DNA of 11,049 nucleotides from Jimgerdemannia flammicorona (Eukaryota > Mucoromycota > Endogonomycetes > Endogonales > Endogonaceae), in the NCBI GenBank assembly GCA_003990745.1, contig RBNI01006711.1:1-11049 (forward strand). Reading direction: 5' to 3'. Below the pieces are notes generated by a model. It saw only the letters and a program-made list of their open reading frames with translations. It was not told the origin of the DNA and did no database searches. This document shows, piece after piece, positions 293 to 11,049 of this stretch. How positions within the stretch are numbered: position 1 is the first letter of the stretch; each line of letters begins with the position of its first letter. A program made the translations under genes and the position numbers.

Positions 293-1389
293 TTACATGC
301 TGTCTGGGTAGTCTTCGATGACATCACCATCGATGACATCATCTCTGATGAAGTAGTCGTCTAAGAAGAGTGGTTTGCGGATTACTTCTCCTTGTTGGCT
401 GAGGTAATAATACATTGGAACTTCGTCTCCGTCCCACAGGATAGCATCATCTGTCTCGTATGCTGGATAAGGTGTTGGGGGGCGAAGAAGTGGTGCATCA
501 TCTTCGTTTTCATTGGATTCGCTGTCTGCGTATCTTCTGTAGGTTACAGCGCTATGAGTCGCAGGGTTGTAGTATGCTGGCGGTTGTGGTTCATGTTGCT
601 CGTACTCGGGTGGTGGAGTGGTTGGTTCAATCTCGAGGGTTGTCTGAAGGTACAGGTTGTGTTCTCTGGTCTCTTCATTATAGTTGAAGTAGTCGGGGGT
701 GAACGCAGGTTGGTATTCGTGCCAGTGGTCATTGTCCCAATAAGTCTCATATGTGGTTATGAACTGTTGTAAGTTCATCGGCAGAGTTGGCGGTGTGATC
801 AGAGTAGGAAGAGATTCTTGGCTTGAGGTCATGTCGGCGTCGGAAGGATCATTGTCTTCTGCTTCGTCTCTGTCGAAGTTAATTATATCGTAGACGTCCT
901 TCATGGCGTATCCAACTTGGGGCATTTGCAGGATGTGATCGTCAGGGTGTGGGAATGTTCTGTCTGTGGTTTCAACGTACTCAAGGTACTTGTGGTTGAG
1001 TTCTTGTATCATGTCGTCGATTTGGCCGTAGGACAGGATAGCAACCATTTCACTGGTAGTAGCTCGGAGGCGGGGAATAAAGGTGCTGTACTCGTAGAAG
1101 AGTTCTTGGTGTTTGCGGGCGATGAGTTTCTGGTGTTGAGACATCTGGGTAATGTCTGTATCATGGTGGTGTTCAACCATATCTTCTAGGAGGCGGCCGA
1201 TCTGGTGTAACTTGAGATTTGTCCAATCCAGTGGGCCTCGTTAAGTATGTTCAGGGCGTTCCATCGGGCTTCCACAAAGTAGAGAGGTGCTTGGCTATAG
1301 ATATTCATGAGGGGCAGAGGGGGTGTAGCTCGGTTGACAATGGCATTCCAAATTTCAGCGCGGATGCAGTTGTAGATCTCGGTGGTCAT
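293..1389 (-). CDS. Unidentified acidic, Tyr/Pro-rich protein, frame offset once
   Basis: I do not recognise the family. An N-terminal part starts at the ATG at 1389 (A at -3, 70 bases below a TATA box) and reads MTTEIYNCIRAEIWNAI; its frame stops at 1186-1188. The main part lies in the frame one base back, open from 1240 to the stop at 293-295, and reads sensibly well before its first ATG at 1180 (residues such as DWTNLKLHQIGRLLEDMVEH). The two frames overlap at 1189-1240, so a single product of about 365 residues would need a -1 shift, a one-base error or a very small intron. The first half is probably helical. The second half is low-complexity and acidic, has two PPxY motifs (PPEY, PPAY) and ends DVIDGDVIEDYPDSM. 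There is no zinc knuckle, membrane segment or signal peptide. It could be a host gene or a gag-like protein of an unrecognised element. Confidence 0.5.
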
Positions 1390-1572: not shown

Positions 1573-1915
1573 ATCTTGCAGATGATTTCCAGATTTGTTC
1601 GGAGATCGCGTGTGATTTCTGTGGCTTGGAGGTTGTGCGCTCACATTTGAGCAGGACCCATGGTTTGAGATTGGTGAGCTAGTAGAGTAGTGGAAGTGGC
1701 TTCTTTAGGAGGTGGTACAAGGGTGGTGGTATCAGGGGAGGCAGCTTCAACTAGGGGCCTTAAGAAAGGTGCAGGACATTATACAGCAGAGTCGAGGGCA
1801 CCTGGTGTTAGATGAGCATGGAGTTAGGTAGAAGGAATGTGTTGGATGATCAACCCTACCTATATATAATATGTCACAGTAGCTGTTTGTGGTTAATTGC
1901 CATTGTATTAGTGGT
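1573..1915. other. Stretch without a recognised gene
   Basis: No convincing gene. In the plus strand a 40-codon open stretch at 1709-1831 has no ATG and no recognisable motif; it could be the C-terminal end of a retrocopied reading frame, since it is followed by a roughly 85-base tail, AATAAA and poly(A). CpG dinucleotides are present up to 1794 and absent afterwards. Confidence 0.35.
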
Positions 1916-1960
1916 AATAAAGTTTGAGTCCAAGTGACTATAAAAAAAAAAAAAAAAAAA
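1916..1960 (+). other. Polyadenylation signal plus A19 tract: retrocopied transcript end
   Basis: AATAAA at 1916-1921 is followed after 20 bases by 19 consecutive A residues at 1942-1960. This signal-to-tail spacing is that of a genuine cleaved and polyadenylated mRNA, so the tract looks like a tail copied into DNA, as with a LINE or a processed retrocopy. The A tract abuts gypsy pol sequence directly at 1961. The 5' end of the retrocopied piece and a target-site duplication were not identified. Confidence 0.5.
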
Positions 1961-1974
1961 GAGGCCAGATCTGA

Positions 1975-2319
1975 AAAAGCCAGACCAAGAAGCCAGAAAG
2001 AAGGACCCTCAAGATCTATGATTTGGGAGAAGACATCCTAGCTCTCATTAGGCATACAACCTATCAATAATGGGTAGAAGATGCCACCAACTTCATGGAA
2101 GCACTAGATCCTATAGAAAAGAGAGATATCAACTACCTCCAAGATCCCTCTACTTGAGCCAGATGGCCACACCTCAACCTCAGAGTCTGGAGGCTTATTG
2201 CTAGTGGAGCTTCAGCCCAAGGAGAGTCCAAACTTAGCAAAGATATTGTCCAGTATGCCCTGCTGCATCCCAAGGCCAAACCTCTGACCAAAGCTCATCT
2301 AGAAGATATATGTAGGATA
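1975..2319 (+). pseudogene. Gag-like N-terminal segment of the gypsy polyprotein
   Basis: One frame carries a readable but unclassified peptide, with in-frame stops at 2068-2070 (TAA) and 2155-2157 (TGA). Readable stretches include LKIYDLGEDILALIRHTTY and DATNFMEALDPIEKRDINYL. It directly precedes the dUTPase and would sit where gag or the gag-pol joint lies. No zinc knuckle or gag motif is visible, so the gag assignment rests on position only. The reading ends where the frame changes into the dUTPase. Upstream sequence is missing because the element is cut at 1961. Confidence 0.4.
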
Positions 2320-2655
2320 TAATCAAAGCCTAGAGGATAAATCCATTAAGTCTGGAAAAACATTCATGATCAGAACTGGATTAGCCATGCAGCCATCCCA
2401 AGGAACTTACATCCAACTGACCTCAAGGTCCAGACTTACCAGACAAGGAATCACTGTGAAAGGAGGAATCATTGACCCAGGATATATTGGCAAAATCAAG
2501 ATCATCTTGTACAACAGTAGTACAGAATAGTACTGAATCATTAGAGGCAGAAGATTGCTCAAGCAGTCTTCATGAAAGTCAAAACCCCTCAGCTACAAGA
2601 AGTTTCTGAATTGACTGAAGGGGCCAGATAAGCCAAAGGATTTGGAAGCTCCAAT
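2303..2655 (+). pseudogene. dUTPase (dUTP pyrophosphatase) domain of the gypsy polyprotein
   Basis: A trimeric-type dUTPase hydrolyses dUTP to dUMP and pyrophosphate, limiting uracil in reverse-transcribed DNA. All five family motifs can be traced. Motif 1 is GYN at 2315-2323 (usually GYD). Next come SGKTFMIRTGLAMQPSQGTY and motif 2 in TSRSRLTRQG. Motif 3 is GGIIDPGYIGKIKIILYN, with the Asp and Tyr kept. Motif 4, QKIAQAVFMKV, begins at 2548. Motif 5 is R-stop-AKGFGSSN at 2626-2655, where family members have RGxxGFGS(T/S). Motifs 1-3 are in one frame and 4-5 in another, so there is an indel near 2520-2545. Stops include 2629-2631. At about 115 residues it is close to a normal single domain. 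It lies between the gag-like part and the linker leading to RT. Confidence 0.82.
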
Positions 2656-3054
2656 ATAAAGGAAGTACATCTCCTTCAGGTCAACCATCTCAAGAGAAAT
2701 GTCCCCCTGCAAGTGTACTACCAACTAGTCAAATTATACAAGAATCTCATCCTAGAACCTGGAGAACAGACCACCTTCAAAATCTTTGCACCACCCAACC
2801 CCAGGAATCTCTTCTTTGAATCCAAAGAAGATATCCCATATCTGGACATAGGAGGATATATGTTTTCTGACAAAATGAATCTGGTACACTCCTGAGCAAC
2901 CAACTAAAGTTGGGAGACCATCATCTTGCTGAAAGGGACTATCATAGGACATCTGGTGTCTTTTCTCAATCAGACTCATAGAAAAGTTTATAAACTAAAC
3001 TTATCAGGAAATGACAAAAGGTCTCAGAAGAAAGGAAAGGCCCCTCTGTAATCC
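2656..3054 (+). pseudogene. Linker between dUTPase and RT (protease position)
   Basis: The frame continues directly from the dUTPase end and holds LILEPGEQTTFKIFAPP, then KEDIPYLDIGGYMFSDKMN, and after stops at 2893-2895 and 2905-2907 TIILLKGTIIGHLVSF. The last phrase resembles the 'ITLKKGTxIGHL' strand that commonly sits between protease and RT in gypsy polyproteins. No D-T-G or D-S-G protease site is visible. Protease may have been lost or may lie in a degraded part. The role is inferred from position. Confidence 0.45.
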
Positions 3055-3086
3055 AGGAGACAGTGAAGTCTTCCACTAATATTGGA

Positions 3087-4140
3087 GAAGAATTGACACC
3101 CCAGCAATAGCAACAACTAGTAGAACTCCTCAACAAATATCAAGATATCTTCACCACTGATTATAGAAACCTGCCATATAATCCATCATATCACCACAGC
3201 ATAAATACAGGAAATGCAACACCCATCTGGCAGAAACTCTATAGAATACTCCATCACCTAAAGACATTCGAAAAGGAGCACATTCAAGAACTCTTGGACA
3301 ATAGAGTAGAACTCCTTAACAAAGATCAAGATATCTTCACTACCAATTATGGAAACCTGCCATACAATCTATCATATCACCACAGCATAAATACAGGAAA
3401 TGTAACACCCATCTGGCAGAAATCCTATAGAATACCCCATTACCTAAAGACATTCAAAAAGGAGTACATTCAAAAACTCTTGGACAATGGAGTCATCCAA
3501 CCTTCTACCAGCCCCTGGGCCAGCCCTATACTTATTGTACTAAAGAAAGGAGGATAGGGACTCTGTGTAGATTACAGAAAACTCAATTCGGTCACTGAGA
3601 AGGATGCCTATCCTTTGTTCAGAATTGATGACCTCTTGGACCAGTTACAATATACTAGATACTTCAGTAGTATGGACCTTTTCACAGGATTCCATGAGAT
3701 CCCCATAGACCCCAAAGACATTCAAAAGACAGCCTTCCTTACCTTAGGAAAACTGTTTGAATATCTCTGAATACCTTTTGAACTTTGCAATGCACCTCCT
3801 ACTTTCCAGAGGATGAAGAATTCAGTCTATGCTCTTCTGATCTACTATTGTCTGATTGTATACATGGATGATTCAAATATCTATTCAGCAAGTTTTGAAG
3901 AATACCTACACTACTTAGAAGAATTCTTCAGGCTCACCCACAAGAACCACCTGAGATTCAATGCTAAGAAATACTACTTTGGAAAACAGAAACTTGAATT
4001 CTTTGGATTTATAGTATCAAAAGAAGGAACTCATGCAGACCCAAAGAAAACTGAGAAGATCAACAATTGGCCAGTACCCAAGACCCTGAAGGAAGCACTA
4101 TTCTTTCTAATATTAGTATCTTATTACAGAAGGTTTATTA
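3087..4140 (+). pseudogene. Ty3/gypsy reverse transcriptase
   Basis: RNA-dependent DNA polymerase that copies the element RNA. The frame opens with EELTPQQ-stop-QQLVELLNKYQDIF (TAG at 3108-3110 where Gln is expected). It contains GVIQPSTSPWASPILIVLKK, VDYRKLNSVTEKDAYP, motif A SMDLFTGFHEIP (catalytic Asp at 3675-3677), motif B PFELCNAPPTFQRM, and motif C VYMDDSNIYS (Asp pair at 3867-3872). The thumb-side ending includes LEFFGFIVSKEG and SYYRRFIKNFTQI. Stops interrupt it just after KKGG (3555-3557) and before motif B. YMDD is less usual here than YLDD or YVDD. The N-terminal 62 codons are tandemly duplicated. Confidence 0.9.
3120..3491 (+). repeat. In-frame 186-bp tandem duplication in RT N-terminus
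   Basis: Copies at 3120-3305 and 3306-3491 are each 186 bases (62 codons), so the frame is kept. By eye they differ at about 17 positions, of which all but one are transitions. Both encode versions of VELLNK-QDIFTT-Y-NLPYN through QKL/QEL-LDN. The unit spans the conserved segment just before GVIQPS, which is present once in ordinary gypsy RTs, so the second copy joins normally to the rest of RT and the first is extra. Confidence 0.9.
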
Positions 4141-4169
4141 AGAACTTCACCCAAATTACTACCCCAATC

Positions 4170-4668
4170 TGAATCCTTCTCAAGAAAGAAGTGCCTTATA
4201 AATAGACAGAATCACAAGAGAAAGCTTTCAAAGAACTCAAGAACTACATGACTACAGCACCAATCCTTGTCTGCCCCAATCTATAGGAGTCATTCATCTT
4301 ATATACAGATGCTTCTAAAGATGGCCTGGGGCAGTTCTAGCCCAAGAAGGACTTGATCAACAGCACTATATAATAGCTTATGCAAGCTGAGCTATCAATC
4401 AGCAGCAGATGAATTATAGCAGCACTAAGTTGGAATGCCTTGCAGTCATATGGGTAGTCACTCTGTTCAAGCATTACCTTATCAGAAAAAGGTTCACCCT
4501 GATAACAGACCATGCAGTTCTCAAATAGCTATTCAACTGTAAGAAACCTACCAGAATCCTGGTCTGCTGGATCCTTATCCTTCAGGATTACAAAATCACC
4601 ATTATCTACAAAGTAGGGAAAACTTACAACAATGTTAATGTACTTTCCTGTCAGCCCCAATGAACCAG
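4170..4668 (+). pseudogene. Ty3/gypsy RNase H
   Basis: Degrades the RNA strand of the RNA/DNA hybrid after first-strand synthesis. The domain opens after LLKKEVPYK-stop-TESQEKAFKELK, where family members have Trp at the stop (4200-4202 region). Catalytic residues are visible: Asp in LYTDASKDG (4308-4310), Glu in STKLECLAVIW (4433-4435) and Asp in LITDHAVLK (4508-4510). A frame change occurs between DG and LGAVLAQEGLD, near 4325-4331. The end, ILILQDYKITIIYKVGK then NNVNVLS, matches the usual 'LQDY..I.Y..GK.N..ADALS'. Several stops make it nonfunctional. Confidence 0.85.
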
Positions 4669-4692
4669 AAGAAAGGTGTCCCAAGGAACTAC

Positions 4693-5718
4693 ACCCTAAA
4701 GAAAGCTCCTCAGACTATCAAAGTACAATAAGATCTCATCTGAAAAGAATATCAGAAAGCCCACCAAGAGCAGGCAAATATAGAAGAAAAGTTGCAAACA
4801 ATATATCAGCATTGGCCCAACCTCAGAATACAAGTCTGAAATATACTCAAGAAATGTAACACCTGCCAGAAGTACTAAGGAAAGAAGAACTATCAAGCAC
4901 CTCTATAACCAATCATACCACCAGACAATATCTTTCAGGGATGGGAAGTAGATGTAATTGGACCTCTATCAGTTATATCAAAAAGAAACAAATATATCCT
5001 TGTACTTGTGAAACATCTAACCAAATGGCTTGAGGCTTTCTCAATGGAAATCACAGATGCCCTGACTATTGTGAGCCTTCTCTATGAACTCACACTTGGA
5101 TATGGACCTCCAGAAGAACTCATCTCTGACTGAGGCACAGAATTTATCAATAACATAATTACAAGTTATGTCTAAATTCACAAGATCCACCTCAAACAGA
5201 TCACATCCTATAATCCCCAGACTAATGGCATGATAGAAAGAATGAATCAGACCATCAAGAAAGAACTTGTCTGAGTTAATCCTACCAATTGGGACCTCTG
5301 CTTACCTGAGATCCTATGGGAAATTTGGAAAACCCCTGCTGCCTCTACTAAACAAAAGCCATTTGAGATGATGTTTGCTAAGAAAACCTGAACTGCTGAC
5401 CATGAGAACCTTGGAGACCTCCTCAAGAAGGTAGAACAGTTATGTAAACAGGTCCAAGTCCAGATTATTAAAGCTCAAGAAAGACAAAAGAAATATTATA
5501 ACCAGAAGCAGAAGGATTAGGAGATCAAGATTGGAGACCAAGTACTAGTCTGGAGAAGTATGATTGAAACAAACTTTGCCACCAAACTGGAGCCCAAGTA
5601 GAAAGGACCTTATCTTGTATACAATATCAGAGAAACCACCATCTATTTAAGAAATATAGATGGATGAACTCTGAGAATACCTGTATACACCAATTGCCTC
5701 AAGATATACCTCCCTCTG
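4693..5718 (+). pseudogene. Ty3/gypsy integrase with GPY module
   Basis: Inserts element cDNA into the genome. The zinc-binding H-H-C-C is visible with His at 4762-4764 and 4810-4812 and CNTC at 4855-4866. The catalytic core shows Asp in WEVDVIGPL (4951-4953), Asp in LISD-stop-GTEFIN (5128-5130; the TGA stands where Arg is usual) and Glu in NGMIERMNQTIK (5236-5238), giving the DDE triad. The C-terminal part has KIGDQVLVWRS and a GPY/F module, LEPK-stop-KGPYLVYNI, where the TAG at 5599-5601 replaces the usual Trp. About a dozen stops lie in the frame. There is no obvious chromodomain after it. Confidence 0.88.
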
Positions 5719-5722
5719 TACC

Positions 5723-6235
5723 ATGAATCGGAGAATTGACAACTGCCTCCAGACTCTCATTCTTAGCTCATTTCAATCACTGCCAGTTCTGCTACTCCAA
5801 TTCCAAAAAAGTCAATGGGAATACCCTGCAGAATATTTAGATTCATCAAGAGAATCTTGTCCTGGCCTAATGTTTACTACAGATCTACTAACTTCAGGCT
5901 CATTATACAATTAGAGAACAATTGCAGGCCTTCCAGCTCCAGAACAAACCTATATCAGAAATACCACAGGATTATCAAGAAGGGATATCACTGCTGCTGA
6001 CAGACTCTATACTCTCTACAAACGAAATCCTATAGCTCTGATGCAAGCACAACTCCCCTGGAATGATATATGAGTAATGAACCTAGCCACCTATCTGAGT
6101 ATTATCAATACTGTTGAAATCATGTTCCCAGAAGAAGAAGAACCTCTGGAATAGAGCAATCATGGTACAGATAATGAAGATAATGGTACAGATATTGTTG
6201 CAGAGGATGCTTATGCATATTGGATTGATGACTAA
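5723..6235 (+). pseudogene. Unidentified ORF downstream of gypsy integrase
   Basis: A single frame, different from that of integrase, runs about 170 codons from ATG 5723 to TAA 6233-6235 with three internal stops: 5912-5914 (TAG), 6071-6073 (TGA) and 6152-6154 (TAG). Readable parts include GLPAPEQTYIRNTTGLSRRD, ITAADRLYTLYKRNPIALMQ and NLATYLSIINTVEIMFPEEE. The end is very acidic (SNHGTDNEDNGTD, ending AYAYWIDD) and includes an in-frame 21-base-offset repeat of ATGGTACAGATA at 6162 and 6183. No membrane segment, zinc site or known domain is seen. The alternative frame 5815-6000 is also open but less protein-like after 5900. It could be the natural C-terminus of pol or a separate accessory protein. 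Confidence 0.45.
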
Positions 6236-6338
6236 AAGACAGTCTTGGACAGACCATTCTTTAGTGGAGGCTGATATGATAAACCAAAAACATAACATCC
6301 AAATTATAATAATGTGAATAATTAGCAACTTAGCCAGA

Positions 6339-6530
6339 TGATGTGAAACATATAGCATAGTAACACAGTAACCATTTATTGAAATATGTAGGTTACAACT
6401 CGATATATGGTGGCGCAGCCTTCCTTGACTACGTCATCATGTAAACGTCACTAATTGCGATGCTTAAAAGCGTGTAAGAATTAGCAATAAACAGTTTGCT
6501 GCTCTCTCCAAAAATCCACATTCCACAACA
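6339..6530 (+). repeat. Candidate 5' LTR of the copia element
   Basis: The right end is fixed by the primer binding site, which begins right after ...TTCCACAACA. The left end is a best guess: TGATGTGAAA at 6339 forms an imperfect inverted repeat with TTCCACAACA, giving a 192-bp LTR of the TG...CA type. CpG dinucleotides reappear at 6401, inside this segment. It contains a TATA-like GATATATGG (6402-6410) and an AATAAA at 6486-6491. The 3' LTR is outside the window, so neither the length nor the target-site duplication can be confirmed. Confidence 0.5.
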
Positions 6531-6543
6531 GGTTATGAGCCCC
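6529..6543 (+). other. Primer binding site, initiator tRNA-Met half-molecule
   Basis: CAGGTTATGAGCCC is complementary to the anticodon arm of eukaryotic initiator tRNA-Met (which reads GGGCUCAUAACC, anticodon CAU). Use of the internal half of this tRNA rather than its 3' end is established for Drosophila copia and yeast Ty5. It sits immediately after the candidate LTR end and about 50 bases before the gag ATG, exactly where minus-strand DNA synthesis would start. Confidence 0.7.
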
Positions 6544-6593
6544 GGTTAGCAGCTATACACCCCTCTTACACTTACACTACACTACGCTATACA

Positions 6594-7520
6594 ATGGCTA
6601 CTAGTTCAAGCAGTGCTAGCAGTGTGCCGCCAAGTCCTGGTAACACAAACACAGCCGGAACAGGTTTTGCTTCCATGACGACGAACATTCCGGCAGTGGT
6701 GCCAACATCAACAGTAAAGAGGATGATTCCTGTCTTTGACGGTAAGGACTACACCATATGGGTGTATCATATGAAGAATCTCCTTGAAGAATGCGGTTTG
6801 GAGGACTACTAGAAGCCACAGGTGCAAGTAACAACATACGACGCCGTGAAAGATCGCAAAGCGCTAAGGGAGATTACATTCACCCTTTCGAATGCGCAAA
6901 TGAAGCTGGTAATCAATGCTACGACGGCGAATGAAGCCTGGGAGATATTACACAATCACCATCAACAGGCATCCACGTTAAACAGATTCCACTTAAAGGC
7001 GCAACTATTCAATCTTCGAATTAAGTCCAAGGAGAGCATCCAGGACTATGCCAATTGAGTCGACGAGCTGGCAAATCAAGTGAATTCCCTTACATCTATG
7101 CTGGCGGACACCATCAAGGATGAAGACAAGGTCCTGGCTCTTATACGAGGCCTTCCCAAAGTGTACAACATGGTTGTCGCTGCTATGAGGGAATCCGGCA
7201 GATTATCAGATTATAAGCATGTCGTCACAAGTCTTTTAAATGAGGAAACGAGGCTAGGCAGCAACAACGCCAATGAGGAATACGACGAGAAAGCATTCTA
7301 CAGTGGAGCACGTGGACGAGGCAAAGGCAAGCCAAACAAAGGTCGAGGCCAGCAATATGAGAAATTCAATGGTAAATGCTTTTACTGTAATAAGCGTGGA
7401 CATTGTGAGCAGGACTGCAACCACAAGAAGAAGGAAAAGGGTGGCCAACAGCAAGGACAACAGCAGGCAAACACGGTGGATGCCAACAACGAAAACAGCA
7501 ATGGCGGAGGTCTATTCTTC
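6594..7520 (+). pseudogene. Copia Gag with CCHC zinc knuckle
   Basis: The capsid/nucleocapsid part packages element RNA. It begins with a Ser/Thr/Pro-rich tail (MATSSSSASSVPPSP) followed by PVFDGKDYTIWVYHMKNLLE, the typical copia gag start ('F.G.NY..W'). The middle has NEAWEILHNHHQ and KDEDKVLALIRGLPKVYNM, which match the UBN2-type gag fold. The nucleocapsid zinc knuckle CFYCNKRGHCEQDC (CX2CX4HX4C) is at 7377-7418, preceded by a basic RGRGKGKPNKGRG stretch. Stops at 6810-6812 and 7056-7058 break it in the capsid region. Confidence 0.85.
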
Positions 7521-7724
7521 GCAGAAGCGGTGACCTATCCATATGCAGAAACCATTGAAATAGGAGGAAATTCGGAACCAACCACCAGTTGCAGATGCAA
7601 TTTCACCAGTTCGACATCTACAAATCCTGGTCAACAAAACACTTTTCAGACAGCGAAAAATGGTGACGTCAACGTCAGTGCCAGCGCAAATGTAAGCTAT
7701 ATGCCGAACAGCACTTATGCATGC

Positions 7725-7985
7725 AGCAATGAGGTCTGGCTCATGGATTTGGGCACAACACAGCATATGACAGCTCACCGAGAGTGGTTCTCTACATACG
7801 AGAAGTTCGAGCATCCCATACCTATCAAGCTAGGCAACAATAACGTCATTTACGCTCAAGGGAAAGGCAACGTAGGCATACATCTACATGGAAACATTGA
7901 TGAACCTTCAGGCACCTTTGTGGACATACTATATGTTCCAGATATAGGCAAGAACCTCTTCTCGATAGGCCGGATGATGGCTTGC
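7725..7985 (+). pseudogene. Copia aspartic protease with D-L-G active site
   Basis: Cleaves the polyprotein in virus-like particles. The domain starts EVWLMDLGTTQHMT, where the family has W-DSGA--HM, and ends with the typical ILYVPDIGKNLFSIGRM (about 7929-7979). The catalytic triplet D-S/T-G is D-L-G (Asp at 7746-7748, Leu TTG at 7749-7751). A TCG to TTG transition would explain this and is again a CpG change. The missing hydroxyl residue should weaken or abolish activity. The frame itself is open here. Confidence 0.82.
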
Positions 7986-8144
7986 GGGGACAGAGGAGTA
8001 AATATACGCCCGAACGGTATAACGGTAATCAATCTGAAGAACAATAATGAGTTAATGTACGCATCGAAAAAGGGGAATCTATACGCAATCAACGGCATGC
8101 CAAGTGGTGCTATATCCGCATATTCTGCAACTATGACAGGAGAG

Positions 8145-9134
8145 GATTTCTGGTGTATAATGCATGAATGCTTAGGACATATCGGTAAAACAAGTCTCGA
8201 ATGGATGGTAAGGAGCAAGTCCATGTACGGTTTACTGGACTATACGCCACTGGATTTCTTTTGTGATGGATGCGCGGCAAACAAGGCTTCCCGGCAACCT
8301 TTTCAGGAATGAACGAAGCGAGCAGCCGGCATTCTCAATTTGATTCATATGGATATTTGTGGCCCCATGCGAACGGCATCACACTCCGGGAAGAAGTATT
8401 TTATTACATTCATTGATGATTATACATGCAAAGTCCACGTATATCTCATTGCGGGGAAAAACGAGGCATACGACAAATTCCGGGAATTCAAGGCAGCCAT
8501 GGAGAATGAGACGGGATGTAGAATACGAACCCTATACTCAGATAATGGCAAAGAATACATCAACAAAGGTTTCAGACACTTCTTGAAGAAGAACGGTATA
8601 CAGCACTCTACGATAGCCCCTTATACACCTCAGCAAAACGGCGTGGTGGAACGATTCAATTGAACAGTAGTGGAAATGGCTAGAATGATGATGAATACGG
8701 CCGGCTTACCGAAGTCCTTTTGGGTGGAAGCAGTGAATATGGCAGCATATATTCGAAATCGTTGTTTCTCTCGAGCTCTAAGTAAGGATCCTGGCAAGCA
8801 ATCCAGGAATGATAGCAATCTTACCCCTGAGGAATTATGGAGTGGATCCAAGCCTGACATTTCACACTTACGCATATTCGGAAGCGAGGCATACATTCTG
8901 GACAAAGGTGGCAACCGAGGCAAGTTCGAACCTAAGGCAGATAAGCATATATTCCTTGGATATGATGGAGCAGGATACAGACTTTGGAACCCGCAGAAAT
9001 GACGTATGATCATTTCATGCAATGTACAGTTCAAAGAGACTAAGCAGGAAATCTACATGGAAATTCCTATCTCAAATCCGATGGTGAATTCGATGGTACA
9101 GCCAGCGACATCTATGCCAACTACAAAGGCTAGC
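8145..9134 (+). pseudogene. Copia integrase (GAG-pre-integrase zinc domain and core)
   Basis: The zinc domain shows H-H-C-C: WCIMHECLGHIG (His 8163-8165, 8178-8180) and FFCDGCAANKASR (Cys 8262-8264, 8271-8273). Cys at 8169-8171 (TGC) stands where the family has Arg, another possible CpG change. The core has Asp in HMDICGPM (8352-8354), Asp in LYSDNGKEYI (8541-8543) and Glu in QQNGVVERFN (8649-8651), so the DDE triad is intact. The copia-type end PDISHLRIFGSEAYI and KADKHIFLGYDGAGYRLWNP follows. TGA stops at 8310, 8661 and 9000 break it. A variable linker then leads to RT and holds the frameshift. Confidence 0.88.
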
Positions 9135-9394
9135 GGAACAACATCTACACCCAGACGTCACCGAAGACTACGCCAAAGACATCCTTGGGACCTATGCCAG
9201 CGAAAACGCAACCCATTCAAACAGAAATAAAGTTGCAAGAACCAAGGATAACAGAAATTATGGATGAGGATGATGAAGAGGATACCTTTCCGAAGGGTAA
9301 GAAGAAGCGCAAATCTGGGATGGATAACGAAATCCAAGCGGATCTGGGAAATTACTGGAACCCACCCAAGTCATCTCATCACAAACAACATCAC

Positions 9395-10510
9395 ATGAAC
9401 TATGCCTGTGAATGCACTTACATAGCAATGATCGGTGAGCCAGCACACTATGACAAAGCCATTCACTCAAGTGATAAGAAGGAGTGGGGAAAGGCTATGG
9501 ACGTGGAGTATAGTTCGCTCATCGAAAACAATACTTGGGATCTAGTAAGCCTTCCAGCAGAGCGACAAGCTATAGGATCGAAGTGGGTCTACAAGATCAA
9601 GTGTAAGGCTAACGGCAACGTAGAATGGTATAAGGCTCGATTTGTAGCAAAGGGATACTCGCAAGGCTACAGCGTAGACTACGACGAGATATTTTCCCCA
9701 GTATTTAAGTTGACTTCACTTAGAATACTTCTTGCAATCGGAGCCAAGTATGACTACAAAATACACTAAATGGACGTAAAGACAGTATTCTTGAATGGTG
9801 ACATAGACACGGAGTTATATGTACGACAACTACAAGGATACGAACTATACGACAACGACGGAAACGAGCTCGTATGTAAATTACACAAAGGGCTCTATGG
9901 AATCAAGCAAGCGGCGAGGTTGTGGAATCGAAAGATCGATGGATATCTCCTAGACAACGGATTCAAGTGTTGTGAAGCCAATCCATGCATATACACCCGA
10001 CATACATCCTCAGGAATGGTATACCTGGGAATTTGGGTTGATGATATTATTTTAGTTGGAATGGCAAGTGAAATCAATGACGTAAAGGCTACACTACGCC
10101 AGGAATTCAAAATGATGGACTTAGGCGAAGCATCCTATCTCCTTGGAATATCGATTACACGTAACAGGTGCGAGCATGCTATACACCTAATGCAAGCCAC
10201 ATACATTCGAAATATTCTCGAGCGATTCGGGATGAGTGAATGCAAACCAGTCGGGACATCTATGGAAACATTCGTGAAACTAAAGAAGTCTGACACTACG
10301 CCCGAGGGAAACGACATCCCCTATTGACAAGCCATGGGATCCCTCATGTATCTTATGCAAGGGACGAGACCTGATATCTCTTTTGCAGTAAACAAAGCGG
10401 CACAGTATTCTTCATGCTACAACAATAGCCATTGGATGGCAATCAAGCAAATTTTCAGATACATCAAAGGAACTGCAGACTATATGCTCAGTTTGGGTGG
10501 TGATAATGGG
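9395..10510 (+). pseudogene. Copia reverse transcriptase
   Basis: Opens with KEWGKAMDVEYSSLIENNTW, then GSKWVYKIKCKANGNVEWYK and ARFVAKGYSQGYSVDYDEIF, the family hallmark. Motif A is MDVKTVFLNGD (Asp 9773-9775), directly after a TAA at 9767-9769 where Gln is usual. LHKGLYGIKQAARLWNRKI follows, and the catalytic motif C is GIWVDDIILVG (Asp pair 10040-10045), WVDD where YVDD is commonest. The C-terminal part has GEASYLLGISI, TGA at 10325-10327 (Arg expected), QAMGSLMYLMQGTRPDISFA and FRYIKGTADYMLSL. The frame differs from that of gag to integrase because of the upstream indel. Confidence 0.9.
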
Positions 10511-10513
10511 TAA

Positions 10514-11017
10514 AGCGGGAGTACTATATGCCTATTCGGTTCTTGTGATGCTGATTGGGCCGGCGACTTAGATGACAGAAGGTCTATGACTGGATACATC
10601 TTTAAAGTAAACAACGGAGCCATTTTATGGCAAATATGTAAGCAACCTTCAGTGGCAACATCCTCTACGCAAGTGGAATATCAAGCATTGTCAACGGCAA
10701 CAAAGGAGGCTATCTGGCTTCGAGAACTGTTAAAGGAGCTGGGATATGAGCAACGGCACTCTATGCTACTCCAGCAAGATAACCAATCAACGATTGCTTT
10801 GGCGAAGAACCCTATACATCATGCCAGAACGAAACACATTGACATACAGCATCATTTCATACGTGAATGTGTGGAAAATGGCACTATACACCTTGAATAC
10901 ACCCCAACAGAATATATGATGGCAGATTCATTGACTAAAGCCCTTCCAAAGGCAAAGTTTGACTTATGCATAAAGAGAATGGGAGTTACGGTGGCGAAAA
11001 CTATATGCCAGCAATAA
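10514..11017 (+). pseudogene. Copia RNase H
   Basis: Removes RNA from the hybrid during reverse transcription. Visible residues are Asp in SCDADWAGDLDDRRSMTGY (10547-10549), Glu in SSTQVEYQALSTATKEAIWL (10676-10678) and Asp in LLQQDNQSTIALAKNP (10778-10780), followed by HHARTKHIDIQHHFIRE and MMADSLTKALP, all typical for copia. This last domain has no stop from 10514 to its natural TAA at 11015-11017. The stop at 10511-10513 lies just before it. Confidence 0.9.
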
Positions 11018-11049
11018 AAAAAAAAACAGCAACAATAGTGAGCTATACG
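11018..11049 (+). other. Short tail after copia pol, before the unseen 3' LTR
   Basis: A run of A residues (about 11016-11026) follows the pol stop, then CAGCAACAATAGTGAGC to the window edge. The purine run could belong to the polypurine tract that primes plus-strand synthesis, but no following TG...LTR match to 6339 is visible, so this is only a possibility. Confidence 0.25.

What the first reader, a model, noticed from the sequence alone, without database searches (positions are those of the whole stretch)
2303..2655. dUTPase domain embedded in a Ty3/gypsy polyprotein ahead of RT
Five dUTPase motifs can be followed in order: GYN, TSRSRLTRQG, GGIIDPGYIGKI, QKIAQAVF and AKGFGSSN. dUTPases are established in betaretroviruses and non-primate lentiviruses but are uncommon in Ty3/gypsy elements. 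Here the domain lies upstream of RT, roughly where protease would be expected, and I see no protease active site. I infer that a gypsy lineage in this host carried its own dUTPase, perhaps to keep uracil out of its cDNA.
Basis: partly seen in the sequence, partly recalled or inferred. Interest (0 to 1): 0.75.

Follow-up and report, generated by a model that had tools for sequence, protein, structure and literature searches.

The report
dUTPase domain in decayed gypsy retrotransposon
A broken jumping gene in this genome carries a real DNA-precursor-cleaning enzyme domain that its relatives also carry, an arrangement already described in fungal and rotifer elements.

Summary
In detail: a broken trimeric-dUTPase domain lies at 2312-2655, upstream of RT in a decayed Ty3/gypsy remnant (about 1961-6376). 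PF00692 matches motifs 1-3 at E = 1.1e-10. It is a lineage trait: the host genome holds about 1,000 candidate copies of the segment and of its RT (40 of each scored), and 4 of 4 copies picked by RT alone carry the dUTPase upstream. A sibling has an aspartic protease ending about 1.4 kb upstream of the dUTPase; the window copy has lost that half, its homology stopping at an A-tailed sequence near 1961. Shared (older) variants in the domain concentrate at third codon positions (25/9/47, p = 1.4e-6), private ones do not, so the domain was probably constrained while the family moved. At least three further dUTPase-bearing gypsy lineages occur in the genome, one with the dUTPase before protease. 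This fits print: PosPlaTy3-5 and bdelloid Juno/Vesta/TelKA carry a dUTPase between PR and RT. New member of a known kind; enzyme activity and benefit are inferred.

The parts
1646..1960 (+). 3' end of an unrelated A-tailed repeat (AATAAA at 1916-1921, A-tract 1942-1960) at which the gypsy homology stops on the left
   Evidence: 1646-1940 recurs at C1381 and C4555 (87%); AATAAA and A-tract read directly; sibling homology starts at 1945-1961 in 11 of 12 loci
1961..6376 (+). decayed internal part of a Ty3/gypsy element (family B); no LTR found in the window
   Evidence: blastn to 12 sibling loci; no LTR-like repeat
2071..2319 (+). conserved region of unknown fold ahead of the dUTPase (TGA at 2155)
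   Evidence: P0002 and P0001 align over the corresponding region; no Pfam match above cut-off
2312..2527 (+). dUTPase motifs 1-3 (motif-1 Asp reads Asn)
   Evidence: PF00692 E = 1.1e-10; unbroken in sibling L046, E = 1.4e-26
2545..2655 (+). dUTPase motifs 4-5 in a shifted frame, interrupted by TAG at 2629
   Evidence: PF00692 E = 0.024 for 2545-2628; tblastn with the P0001 domain
2656..3000 (+). conserved linker between dUTPase and RT, function unknown
   Evidence: P0003 and P0004 are 83% and 85% identical to P0002 over the linker; no Pfam match for window 2632-2892
3119..3490 (+). 186-bp tandem duplication (3119-3304 / 3305-3490, 91%) ahead of RT
   Evidence: both copies align to one stretch in each of 12 siblings
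3490..4170 (+). reverse transcriptase (broken)
   Evidence: PF00078 on 3558-3767 E = 3.8e-8 and on 3813-4169 E = 3.3e-6, below cut-off
4280..4592 (+). RNase H region (broken), limits approximate
   Evidence: position carried over by alignment from L045, RT_RNaseH E = 4.1e-37; not scanned in the window
4724..5690 (+). integrase region (broken), limits approximate
   Evidence: rve on 4915-5130, E = 0.0037, below cut-off; sibling L043 Integrase_H2C2 E = 6.5e-10
6377..11049 (+). Ty1/copia element inserted in the gypsy remnant, cut by the contig end
   Evidence: PF22936, rve, RVT_2; gypsy homology runs to 6376 in 3 of 12 siblings, copia homology starts at 6374 in L036 and 6377 in L037

Best explanation
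The segment is the trimeric-dUTPase domain of a high-copy Ty3/gypsy family (family B here) with the order LTR - gag - CCHC - PR - spacer - dUTPase - linker - RT - RNase H - IN - LTR. SHOWN by sequence: what the domain is, its place between PR and RT in siblings, its presence in the copies examined, kept active-site residues, and older variation concentrated at third codon positions. INFERRED: it was made as part of Gag-Pol, acted in or near the virus-like particle as a homotrimer that splits dUTP to dUMP and PPi, and so kept uracil out of the cDNA and away from uracil-DNA-glycosylase. The window copy is dead: stops, frameshift, 5' half missing, 3' end interrupted by a copia element.
For: PF00692 match in the window and in an unbroken sibling frame, E = 1.4e-26. 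1,002 candidates for the dUTPase-linker segment and 996 for RT, 40 of each scored. 4 of 4 RT-anchored copies have it. In 17 copies motif-2 Arg, motif-3 Asp and Tyr, motif-5 Arg and Phe are kept in 17, motif-2 Ser and motif-4 Gln in 16, motif-1 Asp in 14 (positions chosen from recalled dUTPase biology). Codon positions over 12 copies: shared variants 25/9/47 (p = 1.4e-6), private 22/19/27 (p = 0.49), difference p = 0.033; RT/RNase H shared 44/27/77. Relative P0002 models as a dUTPase, pLDDT block means 91-98 over residues 131-250, and the 50 PDB rows shown are all dUTPases, TM by target length 0.65-0.92.
Against: No activity, expression or packaging was tested. Columns shared among related copies are not independent, and the private-variant control is not clean everywhere: private variants also lean to third positions in the linker (p = 0.027), RT/RNase H (p = 0.048) and the region ahead of the dUTPase (p = 0.012). 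Motif 4 in P0001 and the window reads GQKMAQ/GQKIAQ, not GD(R/K)IAQ, and motif 5 ends GSSD, not GSTG (usual forms recalled); P0002 has GDKITQ. Motif 5 of the model lies outside the confident part. Only 4 copies were tested without choosing them by dUTPase, and one of these (L051) is rearranged.
Confidence: 0.85

Rival explanations
1. A chance insertion: a piece of a host dUTPase gene landed in one gypsy copy and has no role.
For: The window copy is broken and has suffered other insertions and a duplication.
Against: The domain is at the same place in 4 of 4 RT-anchored copies and in 12 of 12 dUTPase-anchored loci examined. Relatives P0002-P0004, 69-78% identical, are in other public contigs (organisms unnamed).
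Confidence: 0.02
2. The domain is kept for another reason than dUTP hydrolysis, for instance as a structural or binding part of Gag-Pol, with weak or no catalysis.
For: Motif 4 and the end of motif 5 depart from the usual forms in P0001 (usual forms recalled).
Against: Eight key residues are each kept in 14 to 17 of 17 copies.
Confidence: 0.12
3. One ancient dUTPase capture was inherited by all dUTPase-bearing gypsy lineages of this genome and later moved within pol, rather than several captures.
For: The backbone of the dUTPase tree is unresolved, so one origin is not excluded.
Against: The domain lies before PR in lineage A (L010) and after PR in B. A and A2 are 56% identical in RT but about 38% in dUTPase, though faster dUTPase change would also give that. 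No supported clade joins the element lineages.
Confidence: 0.3

Closest known systems
PosPlaTy3-5 of Postia placenta (PMC2864245, passages read)
   Same: Ty3/gypsy element of a fungus with a dUTPase between PR and RT
   Different: Treated there among chromodomain elements; in family B no chromodomain was found in the four pieces scanned. Its sequence was not held, so kinship was not measured
dUTPase-bearing Metaviridae of Phanerochaete chrysosporium and Tmt1 of Tuber melanosporum (2008 papers, seen only as cited)
   Same: Fungal LTR elements with a dUTPase
   Different: Original papers and sequences not seen; whether either is the same family cannot be told
Bdelloid Juno, Vesta and TelKA elements (PMC5408684, passages read)
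   Same: dUTPase between PR and RT of an LTR element
   Different: Rotifer host; retrovirus-like lineages with extra ORF3 types
Badnaviruses with a trimeric-dUTPase domain (PMC5649073, passages read)
   Same: Reverse-transcribing elements with a dUTPase; in CYVBV it lies between zinc finger and aspartic protease, the order seen in lineage A here
   Different: Plant pararetroviruses without integrase (recalled); family B has the dUTPase behind PR
Betaretroviral and lentiviral dUTPases
   Same: Same domain family; 1f7d, 1dut and 1duc (lentiviral by recall) match P0001 at 55-56 bits
   Different: Vaccinia dUTPase (86 bits) and human dUTPase (71 bits) match better (names). Against this, PMC2774666 states that betaretroviral dUTPases resemble those of fungal chromoviruses

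Membership tests
Trimeric dUTPase (PF00692) | significant profile match | tested here: met
   window piece E = 1.1e-10; sibling L046 E = 1.4e-26
Trimeric dUTPase (PF00692) | five motifs in order with key residues | tested here: met
   complete in L046 and P0002, with departures in motifs 4 and 5; in the window broken and motif-1 Asp is Asn
Trimeric dUTPase (PF00692) | dUTPase fold | tested here: met
   P0002, residues 131-250, pLDDT block means 91-98; the 50 PDB rows shown are all dUTPases; motif 5 is outside the confident part
Trimeric dUTPase (PF00692) | dUTP hydrolysis as a trimer | not testable with these tools
   needs protein
Ty3/gypsy (Metaviridae) | PR-RT-RNase H-IN order | tested here: met
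   PR in L039, RT-RNase H and IN in L043, RNase H in L045, RT in the window
Ty3/gypsy (Metaviridae) | LTRs | tested here: met
   terminal direct repeats in 6 of 12 sibling loci, 83-93% identical; none in the truncated window copy
Chromovirus | chromodomain behind integrase | tested here: inconclusive
   none in 4 integrase-end or post-integrase pieces of family B, while lineage A (L011) has Chromo E = 1.3e-17; not every frame was scanned
Known dUTPase-bearing fungal gypsy elements | dUTPase between PR and RT | tested here: met
   L039: PR, dUTPase and RT
Known dUTPase-bearing fungal gypsy elements | close sequence kinship to PosPlaTy3-5, Tmt1 or the Phanerochaete elements | not tested
   their sequences are not in the tools at hand

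The most novel reading that the evidence does not exclude
Several gypsy lineages of one host genome took up dUTPases independently, at different places in pol (before PR in A, after PR in B, directly ahead of RT in C), and at least B became abundant. That would point to a host-specific pressure, such as a high dUTP pool or uracil-directed defence, that repeatedly favours elements bringing their own dUTPase.
Probability: 0.25. Interest if true: 0.55.

Novelty: new member of a known kind. Interest (0 to 1): 0.3.

Why it matters
It adds a high-copy example of an LTR element with its own dUTPase, with evidence that the domain was constrained while the family spread. A genome with several dUTPase-bearing gypsy lineages in more than one arrangement is a good place to ask whether such domains are captured repeatedly, and whether uracil in cDNA limits retrotransposition in the host.

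Tried and rejected
Rejected: that protease is absent from the family (found in siblings). Rejected: chance insertion of the dUTPase.

Tried without result: whether the linker behind the dUTPase is a second, decayed dUTPase. A motif-4-like stretch aligns by eye and in hhalign, but P = 0.15 over 20 columns; AF2 gave pLDDT of about 40 there; a search with the linker alone found P0002-P0004 only. Long Foldseek alignments to Dioscorea bacilliform virus were not used: rmsd above 30 A, and low-confidence coil takes part.

Tried: naming the host. Plavaka transposases are present (58 matches), which suggests a fungus (papers on Plavaka seen as a listing only), but no name is available; the hydrophobin search rang nowhere, controls included, so it says nothing.

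Tried: mutation spectrum. 108 of 120 changes in the window copy are transitions, C>T plus G>A 83 against 25 the other way; no one dinucleotide context accounts for it, so no RIP claim is made.

Tried: dUTPase tree. Backbone unresolved; its bootstrap had not settled. The metagenome gypsy group (4 rows) has one unlabelled row (P0010) inside it.

Tried: codon positions first with 10 copies (shared 20/9/43, single 22/13/22), then with 12.

Full report
WHAT IS THERE. Motifs 1-3 lie in one frame at 2312-2527 and match PF00692 at E = 1.1e-10. Motifs 4-5 lie in another frame at 2545-2655, with a TAG at 2629; the piece 2545-2628 matches at E = 0.024, below the cut-off. The domain is real but broken. 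RT follows at 3558-3767 (E = 3.8e-8), and weak integrase similarity lies at 4915-5130 (E = 0.0037, below cut-off).

WHAT SURROUNDS IT. The window is a nest of repeats. The gypsy remnant runs from about 1961 to 6376. On its left it meets a sequence that ends in AATAAA and 19 A (read directly) and whose last 295 nt before the A-tract recur at two other listed places at 87%; this looks like the 3' end of an A-tailed retroposed sequence (inference). On its right a Ty1/copia element begins at about 6377. A 186-bp tandem duplication (3119-3304 / 3305-3490, 91%) is single in each of 12 siblings, two of which break off at window position 3226. So this copy lacks LTRs, gag and PR.

THE FAMILY. A search of the host genome (134.8 Mb, 7,754 contigs, unnamed) with window 2161-3060 gave 1,002 candidates, of which 40 were scored. 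All 40, the window included, align over at least 884 of 900 nt; the other 39 are 82-85% identical. As that query holds the dUTPase, it cannot show copies without it. An RT query gave 996 candidates, 40 scored. All 4 contain the dUTPase, one of them (L051) rearranged. Sibling loci show the order gag - CCHC - PR - spacer - dUTPase - linker - RT - RNase H - IN, and terminal repeats of 83-93% identity were seen in 6 of 12 loci. Protease is unbroken in L039:1847-2500 (PF13975, E = 1.1e-11) and ends about 1.4 kb ahead of the dUTPase at 3823; in L045 a stop splits it.

CONSTRAINT. In 17 copies (the window, 12 dUTPase-anchored, 4 RT-anchored) eight active-site positions, chosen from recalled dUTPase biology, were read. 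Motif-2 Arg, motif-3 Asp and Tyr, motif-5 Arg and Phe are kept in 17; motif-2 Ser in 16; motif-4 Gln in 16; motif-1 Asp in 14 (Asn in the window, L040 and L042). Over 12 copies, variable columns whose minor allele is in two or more copies fall 25/9/47 on codon positions 1/2/3 (p = 1.4e-6), single-copy variants 22/19/27 (p = 0.49); the classes differ at p = 0.033. RT/RNase H (9 copies) gives 44/27/77 and 48/43/67 (private p = 0.048, difference p = 0.11). Gag (9 copies) gives 45/30/74 and 65/61/64 (difference p = 0.004). The linker gives 13/8/30 and 13/7/21 (private p = 0.027, difference p = 0.53). The region ahead of the dUTPase gives 16/10/21 (p = 0.14) and 8/16/25 (p = 0.012). So the private class is not a clean neutral control everywhere, and columns are not independent. 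The reading is that the dUTPase was constrained while the family moved and has decayed since; it behaves like gag and RT in this respect.

OTHER LINEAGES IN THE SAME GENOME. A PF00692 search gave 5,391 loose candidates; 150 were scored, all over the cut-off. The eight loci cut from that search (L001-L008) share a dUTPase followed at once by a protease start. They belong with lineage A, seen more fully in L010 (first element) and L011: zinc knuckle (by eye) - dUTPase - PR - RT in one frame of L010, and a chromodomain in L011 (E = 1.3e-17). L012 and L013 also hold lineage-A domains. L009, L014 and L015, and a second place in L012, form lineage A2; in L009 the dUTPase follows a zinc knuckle (E = 0.0008, just below cut-off) and precedes RT, with a weak RVP_2 match between (E = 0.069). 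Lineage C (L010, second element) has the dUTPase ahead of RT without the linker; a protease was not confirmed there. RTs of A and A2 are 56% identical but their dUTPases about 38%; B is about 40% from both in RT. In a tree of 41 dUTPase rows, A, A2 and B are each a well-supported clade, but the backbone is unresolved and the bootstrap had not settled. Repeated capture is likely but not shown.

WHAT IS KNOWN. PMC2864245 (passages read) reports dUTPases in Postia elements at the N-terminus of Pol, at its C-terminus, and between PR and RT (PosPlaTy3-5), cites earlier cases in Phanerochaete and Tuber, and already suggests independent acquisition. The bdelloid elements Juno, Vesta and TelKA have it between PR and RT (PMC5408684, passages read). 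Entomophthora muscae shows enrichment of PF00692 with other TE-related families (PMC11105155, one passage). A metavirus taken as proxy for the PNMA ancestor has a dUTPase (PMC11011659, passages), and some badnaviruses have one between zinc finger and protease or elsewhere in ORF3 (PMC5649073, passages). Literature searches: in open-licence PMC papers only; the 2008 original papers were not seen.

MECHANISM. Most likely the domain is made within Gag-Pol, trimerises, and lowers dUTP where cDNA is made. By sequence the nearest solved chains to L046's domain are vaccinia dUTPase (86 bits), and human dUTPase (71 bits) is ahead of the lentiviral chains (55-56 bits) (names partly), which gives no sign of a retroviral source; PMC2774666 (passage) nevertheless states that betaretroviral dUTPases resemble those of fungal chromoviruses.

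VERDICT. Observation confirmed, interpretation partly supported, new member of a known kind.

Noticed in passing
P0017 (632 aa, ENA contig of 8,048 bp): A dUTPase lies in one protein behind an integrase-like region (by eye) and a PF25597 domain, which looks like a Ty1/copia pol (my reading of the family, recalled; my notebook says rve, which the precomputed list does not show). The listing of the one search for dUTPase and copia (15 papers) showed no title on it; the papers were not read for this.
   Followed up: partly
window 2656-3000 and P0002-P0004: The linker between dUTPase and RT is strongly conserved (83% and 85% to P0002) yet window 2632-2892 matches no Pfam family; a short motif-4-like stretch is not significant (P = 0.15).
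   Followed up: partly
L043 and L045 between PR and dUTPase; L010 about 6770-6860: A Cys-rich stretch of CxxC type lies between protease and dUTPase in family B, and a Cys-rich stretch also precedes the dUTPase in lineage C (by eye).
   Followed up: no
window 3119-3490: 186-bp tandem duplication ahead of RT, single in the 12 siblings compared.
   Followed up: partly
window 296-1180, - strand, and 1430-1648: An open frame of 295 aa without a Pfam match; 1430-1648 belongs to a repeat, mostly 95-97% identical in the listed places.
   Followed up: partly
L036 and L037: Two siblings break off at the same gypsy position (window 3226), one continuing in a later part of the gypsy and one in the copia element.
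   Followed up: no
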